A stretch of DNA of 7,306 nucleotides from Pseudomonadota bacterium (GTDB lineage Bacteria; Myxococcota; Bradymonadia; UBA4248): the NCBI GenBank assembly GCA_017613855.1, contig JAGACY010000182.1:1-7306 (forward strand). The letters are read 5' to 3'. Below, one piece after another: positions 199-6,236 of the stretch (positions are counted from its first letter, which is position 1; each line of letters begins with the position of its first letter). Under the pieces are notes generated by a model. The model did no database searches. It was not told where the DNA came from and saw nothing but the letters and a program-made list of their open reading frames with translations. Position numbers and translations under genes: made by a program.

Positions 199-465
199 AT
201 GTCGCCATTAAAAGAAAAAGCCATTGCCGAAATTAATGCGTTGAATGATGACCAACTTAGCGCAGTGCTAAGAACAATCAGTGAGCTGAAAGAGACGAAA
301 AATCAGGCTGCAGAACGCGAAAGAATCCGTCTGGAAGCCAAAAAGGCTTTTGATGAGATTCGTGCAGAAAGCCAAAAATATCCCAAGCTGACTCTGGATG
401 AGATAAACGAGGAGATTCGCTTAGCGAGGGAAGAACGCAAAAAGAGGATGCAAACATGTTCGTAG
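199..465 (+). CDS. Antitoxin of a PIN-type toxin-antitoxin pair
   Basis: An 88-residue, highly charged, almost wholly helical protein. I chose the ATG at 199 over an upstream TTG at 118 because GAGAGG (186-191) lies 7 nt before it and because the predicted promoter (121-150) falls inside the longer version. The N-terminal half (about 1-33) is a predicted helix with leucine spacing suitable for dimerisation; the rest is Lys/Arg/Glu-rich helix. The C-terminal stretch LTLDEINEEIRLAREERKKR resembles the tails of VapB/Phd-like antitoxins that wrap around PIN toxins. The gene overlaps the PIN-domain toxin by 10 nt, the usual translational coupling of such pairs. Its expected role is to bind and neutralise the toxin and repress the operon. 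The family is inferred mainly from context, and I cannot identify a specific DNA-binding fold from the sequence. Confidence 0.8.
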   Translation: MSPLKEKAIAEINALNDDQLSAVLRTISELKETKNQAAERERIRLEAKKAFDEIRAESQKYPKLTLDEINEEIRLAREERKKRMQTCS

Positions 466-878
466 TCATTGACACCAATGTCATCGTATCGGCGTTGCTT
501 TCGAAAGGGCTAGACTCGCCACCCGCTCGCGTGGTTGATGCACTCATGTCACAAAAATTCATACCTTTGTATCATCCTGAAATCATTGATGAATATGAAG
601 ATGTTCTGAACCGTCCTAAGTTTCACTTTAATCCAGATAAAGTAAGAAGAATCATCGATCAGATTAAACTTGAAGGTCGCGAAATATTTCCGGCCCCCTC
701 AGGAGAATCCTTCGTTGATAAGTCCGATCTCATTTTCTATGAAGTCGCAATGGATAAACAGGATGAACATGCCTGGCTTGTTACTGGTAACATGAGACAT
801 TATCCTGCTCGGCATTTCATTATGACTCCTACAGAATTTATGGATATGCTTGACAGTTATGGAAAGAAACGACAGTAG
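456..878 (+). CDS. PIN-domain toxin, putative ribonuclease
   Basis: A 140-residue single-domain protein of the PIN superfamily, closest in pattern to the 'putative toxin-antitoxin system toxin component, PIN family' group (TIGR00305/COG1569 type). PIN toxins are Mg2+-dependent endoribonucleases, typically cleaving tRNA or rRNA when the antitoxin is lost. Visible signatures are the N-terminal strand with DTN (Asp6), the helix EIIDEYEDVL followed by NRPKF (about 42-56, Glu46 or Glu48 as second acid), SDLIF (Asp91) and LVTGN (108-112) with HYP shortly after. Most PIN enzymes carry Asp where Asn112 stands, so the fourth metal-binding acid is changed; I recall TGN as common in this subgroup. The ATG at 456 has GAGG at 444-447, 8 nt upstream, inside the antitoxin gene. 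Length is normal for the family. It overlaps the next gene by 20 nt. Confidence 0.9.
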   Translation: MFVVIDTNVIVSALLSKGLDSPPARVVDALMSQKFIPLYHPEIIDEYEDVLNRPKFHFNPDKVRRIIDQIKLEGREIFPAPSGESFVDKSDLIFYEVAMDKQDEHAWLVTGNMRHYPARHFIMTPTEFMDMLDSYGKKRQ

Positions 879-1107
879 CCGCCCAGACAGTGAGATTGCT
901 TTGGCTAGCAAATGCATGAAAATCCTGTGTGAACAAGTTGGTACGCTTGAGACAGAAAGATTTATCCACTTTATTACGTCCAACCATTTTGATTACACGG
1001 AATGGCAAAGGGAGCATTACGATTCGATTCCGGATGAAGTTCTTAGCAAGGAAATCGATGATTTTTGCCAAACCCATCCGTTTCATGGCAAGGGAAAGCT
1101 GCTGTAA
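859..1107 (+). CDS. Small third protein of the toxin-antitoxin cassette
   Basis: An 82-residue protein counted from the ATG at 859; an in-frame TTG at 850 would add three residues. Neither has a clear ribosome binding site, but the start lies inside the toxin gene (20-nt overlap), so coupled translation is likely. The sequence is helical with the run GTLETERFIHFI (about 28-39) followed by FDYTEWQREHY (44-54). This resembles small uncharacterised proteins I recall with the pattern 'lG..eaerFi.li....fDYt.WqRe', sometimes beside toxin-antitoxin genes. No catalytic motif, signal peptide or membrane segment is visible. Its tight packing behind the toxin suggests an accessory role (chaperone, second antitoxin or modulator), but that is inference from position only. 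Ordinary codon use and the retained reading frame through the overlap argue for a real gene. Confidence 0.7.
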   Translation: MERNDSSRPDSEIALASKCMKILCEQVGTLETERFIHFITSNHFDYTEWQREHYDSIPDEVLSKEIDDFCQTHPFHGKGKLL

Positions 1108-1124
1108 GGGATTGATAAGGAGTA

Positions 1125-1232
1125 ACCTCACCCCATACCCCCTGTCACTGCATGACCTCCCCCCTTTCCCTCGCCTCGGTGGAGAGGGAAAAGGGGAAAC
1201 GTCACCCGTAGACTGACAAGGGGGCGTGAGGT
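1125..1232. repeat. Nested palindrome between convergent genes
   Basis: Three levels of pairing are visible. The outermost arms are ACCTCAC (1125-1131) and GTGAGGT (1226-1232). Inside them CCCCCTGTCA (1138-1147) pairs with TGACAAGGGGG (1214-1224) apart from one bulged base. The core is CCCCTTTCCCTC (1161-1172) against GAGGGAAAAGGGG (1184-1196), also with a single bulge, around an 11-nt loop. The element begins 17 nt after the third cassette gene and ends 7 nt after the lipoprotein stop codon on the other strand. It could terminate transcription from both sides, although no T-run follows on either strand. A non-autonomous palindromic repeat is equally possible. Confidence 0.65.
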
Positions 1233-1239
1233 CTAACCC

Positions 1240-2256
1240 TTATTCGTCGTACAACACCTCAATGACGGCATAACCATCGCCGATGTTGCCCATCTGGGGA
1301 GCCTCATGAGCAGTGATATTCATGATATCGCCAACGCGATTCTCATAGTCTTTGAAGAATGGGAAGTAATCATCCACACCAGACTCTATATTCTCACCAA
1401 TGGCATCGAGTCCGTCTTGACCGGCCACCTTTGAGAGTGCATATTTGTCAATCTGTTTACCATTGCAGTCCTCTGCGGCATTCGACCCTTTAAATGCCCA
1501 CGAAGACCCTGCACCGCCGCCCAGATCGGTGTTAAATTTAGTAGCGAAATAGCCGCCATACCAGCCGCCGCCGCCACCGCCGACACCATAGTGTTGAGGA
1601 TTCCATTCACCGCCTCCGCTTGCACCAACGCCATATCCGCTATTGCCAAGTTTGGTAACATCCGGATTCACCGTACAAGCAGATCCAGCCGTGCGTCCAC
1701 CAACGCTCCAGCCTGAGCATTGATGGCTTACCAGACAACTGCCGGGACCTGATTCTCCTTGCCATGTCGCACTTCCGCCTACGCCGCCAAAATTATCCGA
1801 ACTCGTTTTGCAAGAAGCATATTGCGTACCACCACCGCCGCCGCCGGCGATAAGAATTCGGTACGGCCAGTGTTTATCGAGTGTTTTGCAGTCTTCATGG
1901 CCAATGCAGAAGTCAGTGCCGCCGCCGCCGCTTGCGGCTGGGTAGTTAATCGAGCAATACCCCTGACCACCGCCATTGTAGGCAGCATCGCAGCCATCTC
2001 CATTACCTTTGCCTGCCTCACCAACATAGACATAAACATCTGTCGCTTCGGTCAGCGTCAGTTCACCACGAATATAGGCACCGGCACCGCCGTGATTTGC
2101 GCACTGGAAGCCCTCATTGAAAGAGGTGTCGATGGCCATATTGGCATCGGTTGCCAGGCCGCCGCTCGCGCCCCAGGCATGCAGACGATATTTACCCTTG
2201 GGCAACTTATTGGGTTTTTTGTAACCTTTGGTATTAAAAACAATATATTTCGCCAT
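1240..2256 (-). other. ALK/LTK-type glycine-rich domain (coding segment)
   Basis: This is the C-terminal third of the lipoprotein. It opens with a beta strand and a YRLHAWGASGG motif, a usual entry to this family (Pfam ALK_LTK_GRD type), and closes with IGDGYAVIEVLY, the expected final strand. Between them lie AGGGGGG, VGGGGGGWYGG and LGGGAGSSW, plus about ten cysteines that could form disulfides. In the animal receptors the glycine runs form packed polyglycine helices and bind ligand. On the + strand the glycine codons appear as short GCC-repeat tracts near 1560-1578, 1828-1850 and 1918-1935. Confidence 0.6.
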
Positions 2257-4396
2257 CGGACGAACTGAAAATTCTTTAGAAATCTCAGCAACTTGATAGT
2301 TTGTCGTGTCCGATTTAACTGCCAATGTATATTTAAGCGACTTTGTATCAGGTATATCTTTAGGATCCACGGTTTCCGTATGGAACTTAAGATTAATCGT
2401 TTGTTTTTTATTATAATTGTCTTTGGTAAAGGTCAGTGTGGTCGTCGTCAATGCACCGGTTAATGCGGTTCCATTAATCTGAACATCTGGAATTAACAAT
2501 GTGTTATTCTCAGGTGTGGCAGTAAGCTGTACTGTGACATCCGCAGTCGGTGCCTTCGAGAGTTTAACAGTACAGACTTGCGTATCGGTTATGCCATTAT
2601 CATCATCTTTTTTGCTAGTATAGAATTTTGCTTGAGCAATTATTTTAGCCCAGCTCATCTGTATCAAATCCTTCTCGCAATTCAATACAATGCCGGGTTG
2701 GTCATCATCGATGATGGTGATGGTTTTCTCTACGGCTGCCATGCTATTAAAGGCAGGATCGTCACTGGATGCAGTAATGGTGAATTTAGAATCTATATTA
2801 CCGTCGACAGCGTTGTTGTTCATTGTATAAGGGGCAAATTTAATATTGAAACCTTCGTCCCATTTACTTTTTTCAATGGTTTGTTCATAAGTATTTCCCA
2901 GACGTCTCCAATCATTTCCACTATATAATGTATAAATGCCCGCCCTCTGATCATCAGGACCTGTTATGGTAACTTTTACATCTTTGCTGGGTTCGGCATT
3001 AAGCTTAATGGTTACCACTGGTATTTCATCAGTATCTGGGTCTGTATCTTCATTAATTGATGTTGGAACACCATCCACGATTAACGCCGGCGCGGGATCA
3101 TAGGTCACATCGCCGGTTGCAGAATCGCAGACCTGTCCGCTCAGCAGCGTGACGCCTTTGCAGAAATCGCAATTTGCCCACACGCCTTTTTCACAGTCGC
3201 ATGTCGCTGCTGTTTTTTTGCCGTCATCGACACAAGCCGGGTATTCGCAGGTGGCTTCATTCCAAGTGCCGGTTTCTTCGAAGCATTCAGAACACGAGGT
3301 GGCTTTTTCGGGTAATGTTTTACCTTCGCAGGCACTCTTGCAATTGTTGTCGAGCGTAAATTCATTCGTGCACTTGCAAACCCCACCATCATCGCTGCAT
3401 GTTCCGTCGTCTTTACAGGCTTTGCCTTCGCAAGCATCCGTGGCGAGTACGCAGTCATCGGCAATTTCGCCGCCATTATTGCATGTGCAGGTGCCACTCA
3501 CATCGCTGCATGTTCCTGCGTCTTTACAAGCTTTGCCTTCGCAAGCGTCCGAGGCGAGTACGCAGTCATCATCGATATCGCCACCGTTATTGCACTCGCA
3601 AACGCCATCATTATCGCTGCATGTTCCTGCATCTTTACAGGCTTTGCCATCGCAGGCATCCGAGGCGAGTACGCAGTCATCAGCAATTTCGCCGCCGTTA
3701 TTGCACTCGCAAACGCCTGCATTATCGCTGCATGTTCCTGCGTCTTTACAGGGTTTGCCGTCGCAGGCGTCCGTCGCTGCTGCGCAGTCATCAGCAATAT
3801 CGCCGCCGTTATTGCACTCGCAAACACCATCATTGTCACTGCATGTTCCTGCATCTTTACAGGCTTTGCCGTCGCAGGCGTCCGTCGCTGCTACGCAGTC
3901 ATCAGCAATATCGCCGCCATTATTGCATGCGCAAACACCAGCATTGTCGCTGCATGTTCCTGCGGCTTTACAGGCTTTGCCTTCGCAAGCGTCTGTGGCA
4001 GTCGGACATTGTGCCTTGTCACCATTGGGGCAATCGCTGCCGTCGTCGCATTTGCATCCACCACCGCTGGGTACGCAATCGCCTGTATTGGGATCGCAAA
4101 CCGTCCCTGCGCCACAATTCGATGTCGCGCATTTATCACCTGCCGGATAAATGCAGAATTGCCATGAACCGTCCACACAATCACAGCTGGTGGCTGTAGC
4201 CGGCTTTAAAGCCTCATCACATTGGGGGGTATCGTCGTCTTTTTTGTCATCCCCGCATCCTGTCAGGCCGCATGAAACACAAGTCGCCAAAAGCGAAACG
4301 ACGGCGAGACGTCGGAGGAAGCTCGAAGTTCCGTTAATTACTGAACTTTTGTTCTGTGTGCGGGGGGGGGGGCAAGAAGCGTGCCAATTTTGTCAT
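1240..4396 (-). CDS. Surface lipoprotein, EGF-like/Calx-beta/Gly-rich; frameshifted at poly-C
   Basis: The open frame from the stop codon reaches back past 4290 (TTG) into a lipoprotein signal peptide whose start is missing in that frame. The only good start is the ATG at 4396, with AGGAG (4403-4407) 6 nt upstream. It reads MTKLARFL and enters 11 C (4362-4372), after which it hits a stop at 4334-4336. With 10 C the frames join into 1051 residues, the numbering used here: RRLAVVSLLA hydrophobic segment (28-37) and lipobox LTGC (lipidated Cys47). There follow a charged linker, Cys-rich modules, six EGF-like 37-residue repeats (135-352), further Cys modules to about 410, two Calx-beta-like beta domains (about 438-567 and 567-713), and a glycine-rich domain (715-1049) resembling that of ALK/LTK receptors, with runs of four to six Gly and WYGG and GAGSSW motifs. 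Likely anchored in the envelope and exposed for adhesion or ligand binding; that role is inferred. Domain names rest on pattern recognition, not a profile search. Confidence 0.85.
3340..3993 (-). repeat. Tandem 111-bp repeats encoding six EGF-like modules
   Basis: Five full copies of a 111-bp unit (3439-3993) and one degenerate copy (3340-3438) encode modules of 37 residues. Each has six cysteines spaced C-x4-C-x5-C-x6-C-x-C-x9-C; the C-x-C pair is the EGF hallmark. A typical unit starts DACDGKACKDAGTCSDN and ends in CNNGG, I-(A/D)-DDC and a short A/T/S-rich joint. Copies 2 to 5 are very similar in nucleotide sequence, which suggests recent expansion and possible copy-number variation. Copy 6 departs after its fifth cysteine (TNEFTLDNNC). 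Confidence 0.9.
4362..4372 (-). repeat. Poly-C tract (11 C on the coding strand)
   Basis: Eleven consecutive G on the + strand, that is 11 C in the mRNA-sense strand, lie 24 nt into the reading frame that begins at the lipoprotein ATG (4396). Lengths of 7, 10 or 13 C would fuse that start to the signal peptide and the long frame. The observed 11 ends translation after 20 codons. Homopolymers of this length are prone to slipped-strand mispairing during replication and are also a common site of sequencing error. Confidence 0.85.
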
Positions 4397-4520
4397 TTTT
4401 TACTCCTAATCTTATACGATGAAACCAGAACAGTGTATCCGCTCAACCTTAAGCCGGACGCACAAAAAGAGAACGCCCTTGAATGCTGACACTCATGAGC
4501 ATTAAACACCAAACAGCGGT

Positions 4521-4549
4521 ATTCTAACAAATGTACTTCCGAATTTCAA
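4521..4549 (-). promoter_or_regulatory. Promoter of the lipoprotein gene
   Basis: On the minus strand TTGAAA (4549-4544), exactly 17 nt, then TAGAAT (4526-4521) match the sigma-70 consensus at five of six positions in each box. TG one base before the -10 box adds an extended -10 element. Transcription would begin near 4514, leaving a leader of about 117 nt. A small palindrome GTGTATAACAC (4550-4560) abuts the -35 box and could be a regulator site. This is the best promoter match I found, which argues that the gene is expressed and not a decayed remnant. Confidence 0.65.
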
Positions 4550-4615
4550 GTGTATAACACATCTCGGATCCGCCAATTGGCGAGGTAAACGATTCGACCT
4601 GGTTATTCCTCTTAT

Positions 4616-4677
4616 ACAAACGGGTCTGCTCAGACATGACAGCCTTCGCTGTTTGAGTGCACAATGCACCATTAAAA
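4616..4677. repeat. Dispersed repeat, copy A
   Basis: This 62-nt stretch aligns with 6119-6186. Shared blocks in the same order are ACAAACG, TGCTC, the 15-mer GCCTTCGCTGTTTGA, CAATGC and ATT-AAA. Copy A contains hairpins GTCTG/CAGAC (4624-4635) and GTGCA/TGCAC (4657-4669). It looks like a diverged non-coding repeat family that lies near gene ends. Confidence 0.6.
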
Positions 4678-4741
4678 TACAATATTTAAGGCTCTGTTAT
4701 ACGAGTGAGGATATTTTGCTCTCGAAAGATTACCATCCTGG

Positions 4742-4804
4742 CTTGGAGCTTAGAGCTTGGAGCTTAGGAGAAGGGATTTGCCACTCAAAGCTCAAAGCTC
4801 AAAG
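4742..4804. repeat. Heptad-based inverted repeat
   Basis: The left arm is three heptads CTTGGAG, CTTAGAG, CTTGGAG (4742-4762) followed by a partial fourth (CTTAGGAG, 4763-4770). The right arm is three copies of CTCAAAG (4784-4804). The right arm is the complement of the left except at the fourth base of every heptad, so 18 of 21 positions pair with one mismatch per heptad. It could form a long interrupted hairpin in DNA or RNA. I know no function for it. Confidence 0.7.
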
Positions 4805-4848
4805 CAGCACCACCAAAACATTGTACTTTTGTGTACATGTCTCACCAC

Positions 4849-4877
4849 TTGACGTACAGACAAACGGAGTCTAAGAT
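4849..4877 (+). promoter_or_regulatory. Promoter for the HEAT-like/Cys-rich gene pair
   Basis: TTGACG (4849-4854), exactly 17 nt, then TAAGAT (4872-4877) form a plausible sigma-70 promoter with a strong -35 and a weaker -10. The start of transcription would be near 4884, giving a leader of about 129 nt that contains the whole paired-palindrome element at 4893-4946. Confidence 0.5.
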
Positions 4878-4892
4878 AAAAAAGGTGTGCCG

Positions 4893-4946
4893 TATCGCGA
4901 ATGCGATAGGCGCACGCGCAAGGCGTATTTGGCCGCAGGCCAAATA
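4893..4946. repeat. Paired palindromes, copy 2 (inverted)
   Basis: Read on the minus strand, a palindrome with 9-nt arms TATTTGGCC and GGCCAAATA around TGC (4946-4926) is followed by a 17-nt linker (4925-4909) and then by TATCGC-ATTC-GCGATA (4908-4893). The order, the TAT/ATA ends, the CC-TGC-GG core of the first palindrome, the linker length and the CGGC that follows match the element at 46-94. The linkers agree at 10 of 17 positions, whereas the stem sequences differ but remain self-complementary. It lies in the predicted leader of the gene at 5013. Confidence 0.7.
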
Positions 4947-5012
4947 GCCGCGCCCAAAAGATAATCATCCGCATGCCAATCCATTGGCAGAATCAGCGAA
5001 TACCGAGAATTT

Positions 5013-5621: not shown

Positions 5622-6077
5622 ATGAAAAATCTGCTTCATTTTATAAGCTTATCTTTTGTTCTCGCACTCATACTGCCGCAGACGGCATTGGCTGACCTTC
5701 CGCCGATGCCCACGCCGACTTGCGAAACATGCGCAGAGGAATGCGAAGACTTCTGCAACAAAGCCCCATCTGACGAACCTGTTCCCACTTCTTTTTTCTG
5801 CTCCCAGTGTTCAGGCCTGAATTGTAATCTCGATGAAGTCTGCAAAAAAAGCGGAGAAGGAGATGAAAAACCACAGGAAGAAGGAGATGTGAAACCCGAG
5901 GGCGATAATCAGACAATTGCGGTTCAGGCCAAAAAAGACCCACAGGATAATGCATGCTCCGCATCGCCGCTCATGCCCAATGCACAAAACTGGTCACTGT
6001 TCTTTATTCTCATGGCTCTCCTCGGGGCGATGAGCTTTGGCGCAATCTGGCGACTGAACAGGAAATCCGGTCATTAA
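5622..6077 (+). CDS. Secreted Cys-rich protein with C-terminal anchor
   Basis: A 151-residue protein with a clear Sec signal peptide (MKNLL, hydrophobic core 6-20, ALA cleavage site after residue 24). The mature part begins Pro-rich and carries eight cysteines in two clusters, C-x2-C-x3-C-x3-C (34-45) and C-x2-C-x4-C-x5-C (60-74), which could form disulfides or hold metal. A Glu/Asp/Lys-rich flexible linker (75-109) follows. The end is tripartite: ACSASP with Cys112, a membrane helix starting WSLFFILMALL (124-143) and a basic tail RLNRKSGH. That layout resembles C-terminal sorting signals such as MYXO-CTERM, in which a Cys precedes the helix; the match is only in layout. Strong ribosome binding site GGAG (5611-5614), 7 nt before the ATG. 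Probably in one operon with the HEAT-like gene. Function unknown. Confidence 0.85.
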   Translation: MKNLLHFISLSFVLALILPQTALADLPPMPTPTCETCAEECEDFCNKAPSDEPVPTSFFCSQCSGLNCNLDEVCKKSGEGDEKPQEEGDVKPEGDNQTIAVQAKKDPQDNACSASPLMPNAQNWSLFFILMALLGAMSFGAIWRLNRKSGH

Positions 6078-6207: not shown

Positions 6208-6236
6208 TTGTAAAAAAAAAACCAATCCATTATAAA
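6208..6236 (+). promoter_or_regulatory. Promoter of the phosphohexomutase gene
   Basis: TTGTAA (6208-6213), a 17-nt spacer containing most of a run of ten A (6212-6221), and TATAAA (6231-6236) form a plausible sigma-70 promoter. Transcription would begin near 6243, about 44 nt before the ATG at 6287. Prediction from sequence only. Confidence 0.45.

What the first reader, a model, noticed from the sequence alone, without database searches (positions are those of the whole stretch)
4334..4407. Poly-C tract after the start codon puts the surface lipoprotein out of frame: candidate phase-variable switch
Seen: strong promoter, AGGAG and ATG at 4396, then 11 C, then a stop after 20 codons. The downstream frame has no acceptable start of its own but encodes a full lipoprotein signal sequence (RR, hydrophobic core, LTGC). 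Removing one C (10 C) joins ATG to the signal peptide and gives a 1051-residue lipoprotein. Known: homopolymeric G/C tracts near the 5' end of surface-protein genes drive ON/OFF phase variation in several bacteria. Inference: this locus switches expression of a large surface protein and is recorded here in an OFF state. The rival explanation is an 11-versus-10 homopolymer error.
Basis: partly seen in the sequence, partly recalled or inferred. Interest (0 to 1): 0.85.

Follow-up and report, generated by a model that had tools for sequence, protein, structure and literature searches.

The report
Candidate poly-C switch on surface lipoprotein
A run of eleven identical bases right after the start of a gene for a large, apparently surface-attached protein leaves the gene out of frame in this sequence, and most likely works as a slip-prone on/off switch of a kind already known from other bacteria, although variation of its length could not be observed here.

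Summary
On the minus strand, ATG 4396 has an AGGAG six bases upstream and is followed at codons 9-12 by eleven C (4362-4372). That frame ends after 20 codons. A 1050-codon frame opens at 4392 and runs to 1240. It encodes FLRR, a hydrophobic core, LTGC, six 37-residue Cys-rich repeats and an ALK/LTK-type glycine-rich domain, but has no usable start of its own. Its only ATG/GTG/TTG before the lipobox is a TTG inside the signal peptide, which is where the database copy of the protein begins.

Best reading (0.6): a slipped-strand ON/OFF contingency tract, recorded OFF. The closest tested precedent is the G tracts of two Bifidobacterium breve pilus loci. In the protein database 3 of 3 close entries (one the window's own gene) lack a complete signal peptide. 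That fits a recurrently broken 5' end, but contig ends may equally explain the other two.

Not shown: any length variation. No DNA of relatives, no own genome and no reads could be reached.

Rivals: an 11-mer miscount; +1 ribosomal slippage on three consecutive CCC-C sites; a start at ATT 4338; recent gene loss. New member of a known kind.

The parts
4521..4549 (-). sigma-70-like promoter match TTGAAA-17-TAGAAT with TG before the second hexamer
   Evidence: Consensus scan, 10 of 12 positions; 9 sites found in 1100-5000 against 4.8 +/- 1.9 in shuffles, so weak
4403..4407 (-). Shine-Dalgarno AGGAG, 6 nt before the ATG
   Evidence: Sequence; anti-SD duplex -6.8 kcal/mol, reached by 17 of 334 ATGs of both strands, this one counted
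4334..4396 (-). short frame from the ATG: 20 aa, PPPP from the tract, stop TAA 4336-4334
   Evidence: Translation; codon list with CCC CCC CCC CCG at codons 9-12
4362..4372 (-). C11 tract (G11 on the + strand), the putative slippage site
   Evidence: longest run in the window, next C/G run is 6
1240..4392 (-). lipoprotein reading frame, 1050 aa, out of frame with ATG 4396 in the recorded sequence, no proper start
   Evidence: database copy P0003 (1016 aa) starts at TTG 4290
4255..4320 (-). signal peptide core and lipobox: FLRR, hydrophobic stretch, LTGC (Cys = residue 46 of the frame)
   Evidence: hydropathy up to 2.6 over 11 residues
4336..4338 (-). ATT codon of the lipoprotein frame overlapping the stop of the short frame; would start a normal-length signal peptide, but has no Shine-Dalgarno
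3369..3999 (-). 111-bp tandem repeat, 5.7 copies, 86% matches, coding 37-aa Cys-rich EGF-like units
   Evidence: 6 units by pattern in P0001
1252..2208 (-). ALK/LTK-type glycine-rich domain (PF12810), residues 729-1047
   Evidence: hmmscan 109.1 bits, cut-off 24.5

Best explanation
The C11 tract is a translational contingency switch. Translation starts at ATG 4396 (AGGAG). DNA polymerase slippage lengthens or shortens the C run, so that in one length class out of three the ribosome enters the 1050-codon frame and makes a large lipoprotein exported through its signal peptide and anchored by LTGC. In the other two classes it stops within about 20 codons. The recorded sequence is in a non-expressing class. 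Shown by sequence: the tract, the start signals, the frame offset, the early stops in both other frames, the open downstream frame and the lack of another usable start. Inferred: slippage in vivo, reversibility, surface exposure, and a role in attachment or in avoiding recognition.
For: Anatomy. The downstream frame is open for 1050 codons and keeps its glycine-rich domain to the profile's end (4-243 of 243), so the gene is not generally decayed. The product is of the right kind: lipobox, Cys-rich repeats, glycine-rich domain. Database relatives: of the three close entries, P0003 (the window's own gene) and P0005 begin inside the signal peptide and P0004 after it, while the distant P0007 (26% identity over 40% of the query) has an ordinary full signal peptide with no proline run. 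A search with the first 115 residues of the frame returned no full-length in-frame form: 2 matches (P0003, P0005) among 48 candidates. Precedent: B. breve UCC2003 pilus loci with G tracts (G11 deposited at bbr_0113), a similar split into a mini-ORF with start signals and a long ORF without them, and pili seen on strains in which the two were put in frame (PMC9187656, passages and section 15); poly-C in the coding region of nalP and ausI of Neisseria (PMC5472700, passages).
Against: No length variation was seen; there is one allele only. P0003 is listed on 2 contigs with one member sequence, which if anything suggests one recorded state, though the two may be copies of one assembly. P0004 and P0005 lie on contigs of 3.9 and 3.5 kb, so truncation by a contig end or gene-caller choice can explain their short N-termini. 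The only relative seen with a complete N-terminus, P0007, has no such tract. In the in-frame class the signal peptide would carry an n-region of more than 20 residues, longer than usual. The survey of 99 prokaryote genomes in PMC2831843 (abstract) reports over-representation and 5' placement for poly(A) and poly(T), so it is no support for poly(C).
Confidence: 0.6

Rival explanations
1. Assembly or sequencing miscount of a long homopolymer: the gene is really in frame and, in the strict form of this rival, stable and always expressed.
For: Homopolymers are a known weak spot of sequencing and bioinformatics (PMC8808543 abstract and passages); in B. breve the deposited G11 differs from the majority length (G12 about 60%, G11 about 37%; PMC9187656 passage).
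Against: The PIN, HEAT and phosphomutase genes and the glycine-rich domain match their Pfam profiles almost end to end without a break, and runs of 6-7 bases lie inside open frames (those frames were picked because they are open, so their 0 internal stops are no independent test). The same predicted protein is listed on 2 contigs, though possibly from the same reads. A run of this length would be slip-prone in either count, so a miscount alone does not abolish a switch.
Confidence: 0.17
2. Recoding: the recorded state is not fully OFF, because ribosomes slip +1 on the three consecutive CCC-C sites (codons 9-11) and enter the lipoprotein frame, giving low or conditional expression set by tRNA-Pro m1G37 methylation and EF-P.
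For: The offset between the frames is the +1 direction, and the tract reads CCC CCC CCC CCG in the ATG frame. CCC-C next to AUG gives up to about 1% +1 shift in E. coli and 8-fold more without m1G37 (PMC4519876 passages); 1.4% rising to 7.0% for the ProL strain in a lacZ assay (PMC7803779 passages).
Against: The second codon is described as the most shift-prone position, and here the sites are at codons 9-11. No stimulating RNA structure: z-score +0.65 over 4250-4516, 147 of 200 shuffles fold at least as well. No relative with a conserved site was seen.
Confidence: 0.08
3. The short ORF is a leader peptide with a polyproline stall, and the lipoprotein starts at ATT 4338, overlapping the leader's stop, by coupled re-initiation; the tract lies outside the lipoprotein's coding region.
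For: From ATT the signal peptide would be INGTSSFLRRLAVVSLLATCVSCGLTGC, close in length to that of P0007; the start would overlap the TAA (ATTAA).
Against: ATT starts are very rare (recalled), and there is no Shine-Dalgarno (-0.4 kcal/mol).
Confidence: 0.05
4. A gene recently lost by a frameshift in the tract, not reversibly switched.
For: A single non-expressing allele; nothing shows reversion.
Against: The 1050-codon frame is otherwise open, with Cys repeats and a complete glycine-rich domain; relatives of 55% and 40% local identity keep the same layout. A run this long remains prone to slip back.
Confidence: 0.1

Closest known systems
Bifidobacterium breve UCC2003 sortase-pilus switches bbr_0113 and bbr_1889 (PMC9187656; passages and section 15 seen)
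   Same: Short upstream ORF with promoter and start signals; homopolymeric G tract (G11 deposited at bbr_0113); long downstream ORF of a surface protein whose annotated start lacks a Shine-Dalgarno and a signal sequence; the two ORFs are out of frame in the deposited sequence.
   Different: There the protein is a sortase-anchored pilin heading an operon, the Sec signal and the LPXTG motif are said to be encoded by the two different ORFs, and length mixtures were measured. Here the protein is a lipoprotein, the whole signal peptide core lies behind the tract, the tract is C in the coding strand, and no mixture has been measured.
Neisseria meningitidis nalP and ausI poly-C phase variation (PMC5472700; passages seen)
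   Same: Poly-C in the coding region, ON/OFF switching (slipped-strand mispairing stated for nalP), secreted or surface product.
   Different: Autotransporter proteases, not compared in sequence here; their state was surveyed over many strains.
Listeria monocytogenes inlA 5' poly(A) tract (PMC2831843; abstract and outline seen)
   Same: Homopolymer at the 5' end of a surface-protein gene whose frameshift leaves a tiny peptide.
   Different: Poly(A), 8-aa truncated product; frequency estimated with a fusion. The survey in that paper concerns poly(A) and poly(T).
tRNA-Pro +1 frameshifting on CCC-C (PMC4519876, PMC7803779; passages seen)
   Same: The same slippery codons and the same direction of shift.
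   Different: Studied mainly at codon 2 and as an error, not as a switch in a gene like this.

Membership tests
Homopolymeric-tract contingency (phase-variable) locus | Long mononucleotide tract inside the 5' coding region | tested here: met
   C11 at codons 9-12; 0.0012 expected in the window
Homopolymeric-tract contingency (phase-variable) locus | Tract length decides between full-length product and early stop | tested here: met
   Frames offset by one; the ATG frame stops after 20 codons and the third frame at its 19th. By sequence only
Homopolymeric-tract contingency (phase-variable) locus | Tract length varies within a population or between close strains | not testable with these tools
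   No reads, no own genome, no DNA of a true relative
Homopolymeric-tract contingency (phase-variable) locus | Reversible ON/OFF expression | not testable with these tools
   Needs culture or single-cell data
Homopolymeric-tract contingency (phase-variable) locus | Several such tracts in the same genome | not testable with these tools
   No whole genome held for the window; no other C/G run above 6 in the window
Bacterial lipoprotein | n-region with Arg/Lys, hydrophobic core, lipobox [LVI][ASTVI][GAS]C | tested here: met
   FLRR...LTGC, residues 25-46; lipobox motif recalled, checked by eye
ALK/LTK glycine-rich domain proteins (PF12810) | Pfam match above curated cut-off | tested here: met
   109.1 bits against 24.5
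Programmed +1 recoding gene | Slippery site in the right direction | tested here: met
   CCC-C at codons 9-11, +1 enters the lipoprotein frame
Programmed +1 recoding gene | Stimulating RNA structure | tested here: not met
   Fold z-score +0.65 over 4250-4516, 147 of 200 shuffles at least as stable
Programmed +1 recoding gene | Conservation of the site in relatives | not testable with these tools
   No DNA of a true relative obtained

The most novel reading that the evidence does not exclude
A two-layer switch: a C tract that sets the frame genetically by replication slippage and, in the 'OFF' class recorded here, still leaks through +1 slippage of tRNA-Pro on CCC-C, so that low expression follows m1G37 methylation and EF-P state. 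'OFF' cells would be a tunable low state rather than silent.
Probability: 0.07. Interest if true: 0.7.

Novelty: new member of a known kind. Interest (0 to 1): 0.42.

Why it matters
If true, a bacterium of unknown identity switches a 1050-residue repeat-rich lipoprotein genetically, and gene callers hide this: the database copy of the protein starts at a TTG inside its own signal peptide, so it no longer looks like a lipoprotein. Out-of-frame contingency genes in metagenomes may be systematically mis-started in this way, which can be tested at scale by looking for out-of-frame signal peptides behind C/G tracts.

Tried and rejected
Genome-contig scan with the lipoprotein frame: 24 stretches matched a pattern and 1 was confirmed, L001, a sheep-rectum contig titled Bacteroidales. 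On reading, the match is a 175-aa lipoprotein sharing only query residues 23-58 (signal peptide and CGDDKKDD), so I treat it as no relative. Viral-contig scans: 2 stretches matched and 0 confirmed; with the alignment, 7 matched and 0 confirmed. Plasmids, tblastn: none. E. coli genomes, megablast with 301 bases around the tract: none. P0006 (subtilase-domain protein, 24% of the query covered) is taken as a match of Cys-rich repeats only. PDB by profile: one weak match to a Notch fragment, E 0.0029, in line with EGF-like repeats and no more. Rfam at gathering scores: 0 matches. RNA structure around the start: nothing beyond shuffles. AlphaFold model from 3 sequences: mean pLDDT 44.1, pTM 0.30, unusable, so no fold search was made. 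Taxon: not identified. The sugar-phosphomutase gene gave 78 plasmid records, all below 60% identity, the 8 listed at 38-42%, of many groups; my impression of a myxobacterium-like origin is recall, not a result.

Paper searches of which I saw only the listing and abstract beginnings, apart from the papers cited: phase variation / homopolymeric tract / Myxococcota, 163 papers with two of three terms, 15 listed; poly-C lipoprotein terms, 9; Bradymonadales + rumen + metagenome-assembled, 4; gut and metagenome phase variation, 16, 15 listed; simple sequence repeats + phase variation + deltaproteobacteria, 0; myxococc + phase variation + slipped-strand, 3; m1G37 and EF-P, 21, 12 listed; UBA4248 + Myxococcota, 0; glycine-rich domain, 55, 6 listed, none useful; homopolymers in metagenome-assembled genomes, 18, 8 listed, none followed. 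No claim of absence from print is made.

Full report
What is there. The window carries, on the minus strand, a start region AGGAG-TAAAAA-ATG (AGGAG 4407-4403, ATG 4396-4394) followed by seven codons and eleven C (4362-4372). Read from the ATG the frame gives MTKLARFLPPPPHTEQKFSN and stops. The frame one step over is open from 4392 to 1240 and encodes 1050 residues: 24 residues that include the tract, then FLRRLAVVSLLATCVSCGLTGC, a lipoprotein signal with its Cys at residue 46; six Cys-rich units of 37 residues encoded by a 111-bp tandem repeat; a region with only two Cys in 280 residues (441-720); and an ALK/LTK-type glycine-rich domain at residues 729-1047 (109.1 bits against a cut-off of 24.5).

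The long frame has no start of its own. Upstream of the lipobox Cys the only candidates are ATT 4338, TTG 4290 in the middle of the hydrophobic core and CTG 4266 inside LTGC; their anti-Shine-Dalgarno energies are -0.4, +1.1 and +0.4 kcal/mol, against -6.8 for ATG 4396. The public copy of the protein, P0003, has 1016 residues, i.e. it starts at that TTG and loses most of its signal peptide. The third frame behind the ATG also ends early, at its 19th codon. So by arithmetic one class of tract lengths in three expresses the protein, and the recorded one does not.

Chance. A first-order model expects 0.0012 C/G runs of 11 or more in the window. As an empirical base rate, 22 of 60 genomes of the order of G001 (L001's record is titled Bacteroidales) hold at least one; I counted 50 distinct runs by hand in that listing over about 206 Mb (sum of the rounded genome sizes), some at contig ends. 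The window's own taxon is unknown, so this is a loose yardstick. The run is rare; its position is what makes it telling. The promoter claim is weak: 9 sites against 4.8 +/- 1.9 in shuffles.

Is it a sequencing fault? The PIN, HEAT_2 and two phosphomutase domains and the glycine-rich domain match their Pfam profiles almost from end to end (2-114 of 115, 2-87 of 88, 2-133 of 138, 2-99 of 103, 4-243 of 243), so no frameshift breaks them. One search found 0 internal stops in six other stretches and in the long frame, several with runs of 6-7 bases, but those stretches had been chosen as open frames, so this is no independent test. All this lowers but does not remove the chance of a miscount in an 11-mer. 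A miscount would leave the tract just as prone to slip; in B. breve the deposited G11 was one of two major alleles, G11 about 37% and G12 about 60% (PMC9187656, passages).

Relatives. The protein search returned 4 proteins from 7991 scored candidates, the profile search 5 of 7991, and the N-terminal search 2 of 48. Of the three close entries, P0003 is the window's own gene, P0005 (40% local identity) begins at VSCGLTGC inside the signal peptide, and P0004 (55%) begins after it. That is 3 of 3 without a complete signal peptide; since P0003 is the window itself, only two are independent, and their contigs are short. The distant P0007 has an ordinary signal peptide, MSEISKRRLALACCAALAFAVAAC, and no tract. 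The number of 37-residue units differs: 6, 3 and 2 by one pattern in P0001, P0004 and P0005. No DNA of a true relative was obtained: the genome-contig hit L001 is an unrelated lipoprotein, the viral and plasmid searches were empty, and no own genome is held. The host remains unidentified.

Mechanism. The best reading is slipped-strand phase variation in the 5' coding region. The nearest tested system is the pair of sortase-pilus loci of B. breve UCC2003: a mini-ORF with promoter and start signals, a G tract, a long ORF whose annotated start lacks a Shine-Dalgarno and a signal sequence, and pili on strains in which the two ORFs were placed in frame (PMC9187656, section 15 and passages). One difference is that there the Sec signal and the anchor motif are said to lie in the two different ORFs, while here the signal peptide core lies behind the tract. 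Poly-C in the coding region switches nalP and ausI in Neisseria (PMC5472700, passages), and a 5' poly(A) inactivates inlA (PMC2831843, abstract; the genome survey in that abstract speaks for poly(A) and poly(T), not for poly(C)). The window adds no mechanism to these.

Two further readings deserve record. First, the step between the two frames is the +1 direction, and the tract reads CCC CCC CCC CCG; CCC-C is described as particularly slippery for +1 shifts in E. coli (up to about 1% at codon 2, more without m1G37: PMC4519876 and PMC7803779, passages). The 'OFF' class could leak. Against it, the sites lie at codons 9-11 and there is no helping RNA structure. Second, ATT 4338 overlaps the stop of the short frame and would begin a signal peptide of ordinary length; without a Shine-Dalgarno this is unlikely.

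Verdict. Observation confirmed; interpretation plausible and architecturally well matched, but with its defining property untested. New member of a known kind, interest 0.42.

Noticed in passing
window 3369-3999 (-): 111-bp tandem repeat, 5.7 copies at 86% matches, coding 37-aa Cys-rich units whose number differs between relatives (6, 3 and 2 by pattern), so the protein may also vary in size.
   Followed up: partly
window 199-1107 (+): Toxin-antitoxin-like operon: a small ORF (199-465), an overlapping PIN_3 / TIGR00305 protein (456-878) and a third small overlapping ORF (859-1107); the first and third have no family match.
   Followed up: partly
window 4741-4805: GCTTGGAGCTTAG direct repeats and CTCAAAG x3 close by; by eye the words are nearly reverse-complementary. 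They lie in the intergenic region upstream of the lipoprotein gene.
   Followed up: no
window 5622-6077 (+): Small Cys-rich, apparently secreted protein with a C-terminal hydrophobic segment and basic tail (by eye), no Pfam or NCBIfam match; looks like a second surface protein.
   Followed up: no
window 6212-6221 (+): A10 run about 65 bases before the sugar-phosphomutase ATG (6287), in the intergenic region; possible second slip-prone tract.
   Followed up: no
P0003 (database copy of the window's protein): Automatic annotation starts the gene at a TTG inside the signal peptide, which hides a lipoprotein; P0005 also begins inside the signal peptide.
   Followed up: partly
G036, G042, G048: A few of the 60 genomes searched carry several distinct C/G runs of 11 or more (by hand count 9 in G036, 5 each in G042 and G048) while 38 of 60 carry none; not examined for position in genes.
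   Followed up: no
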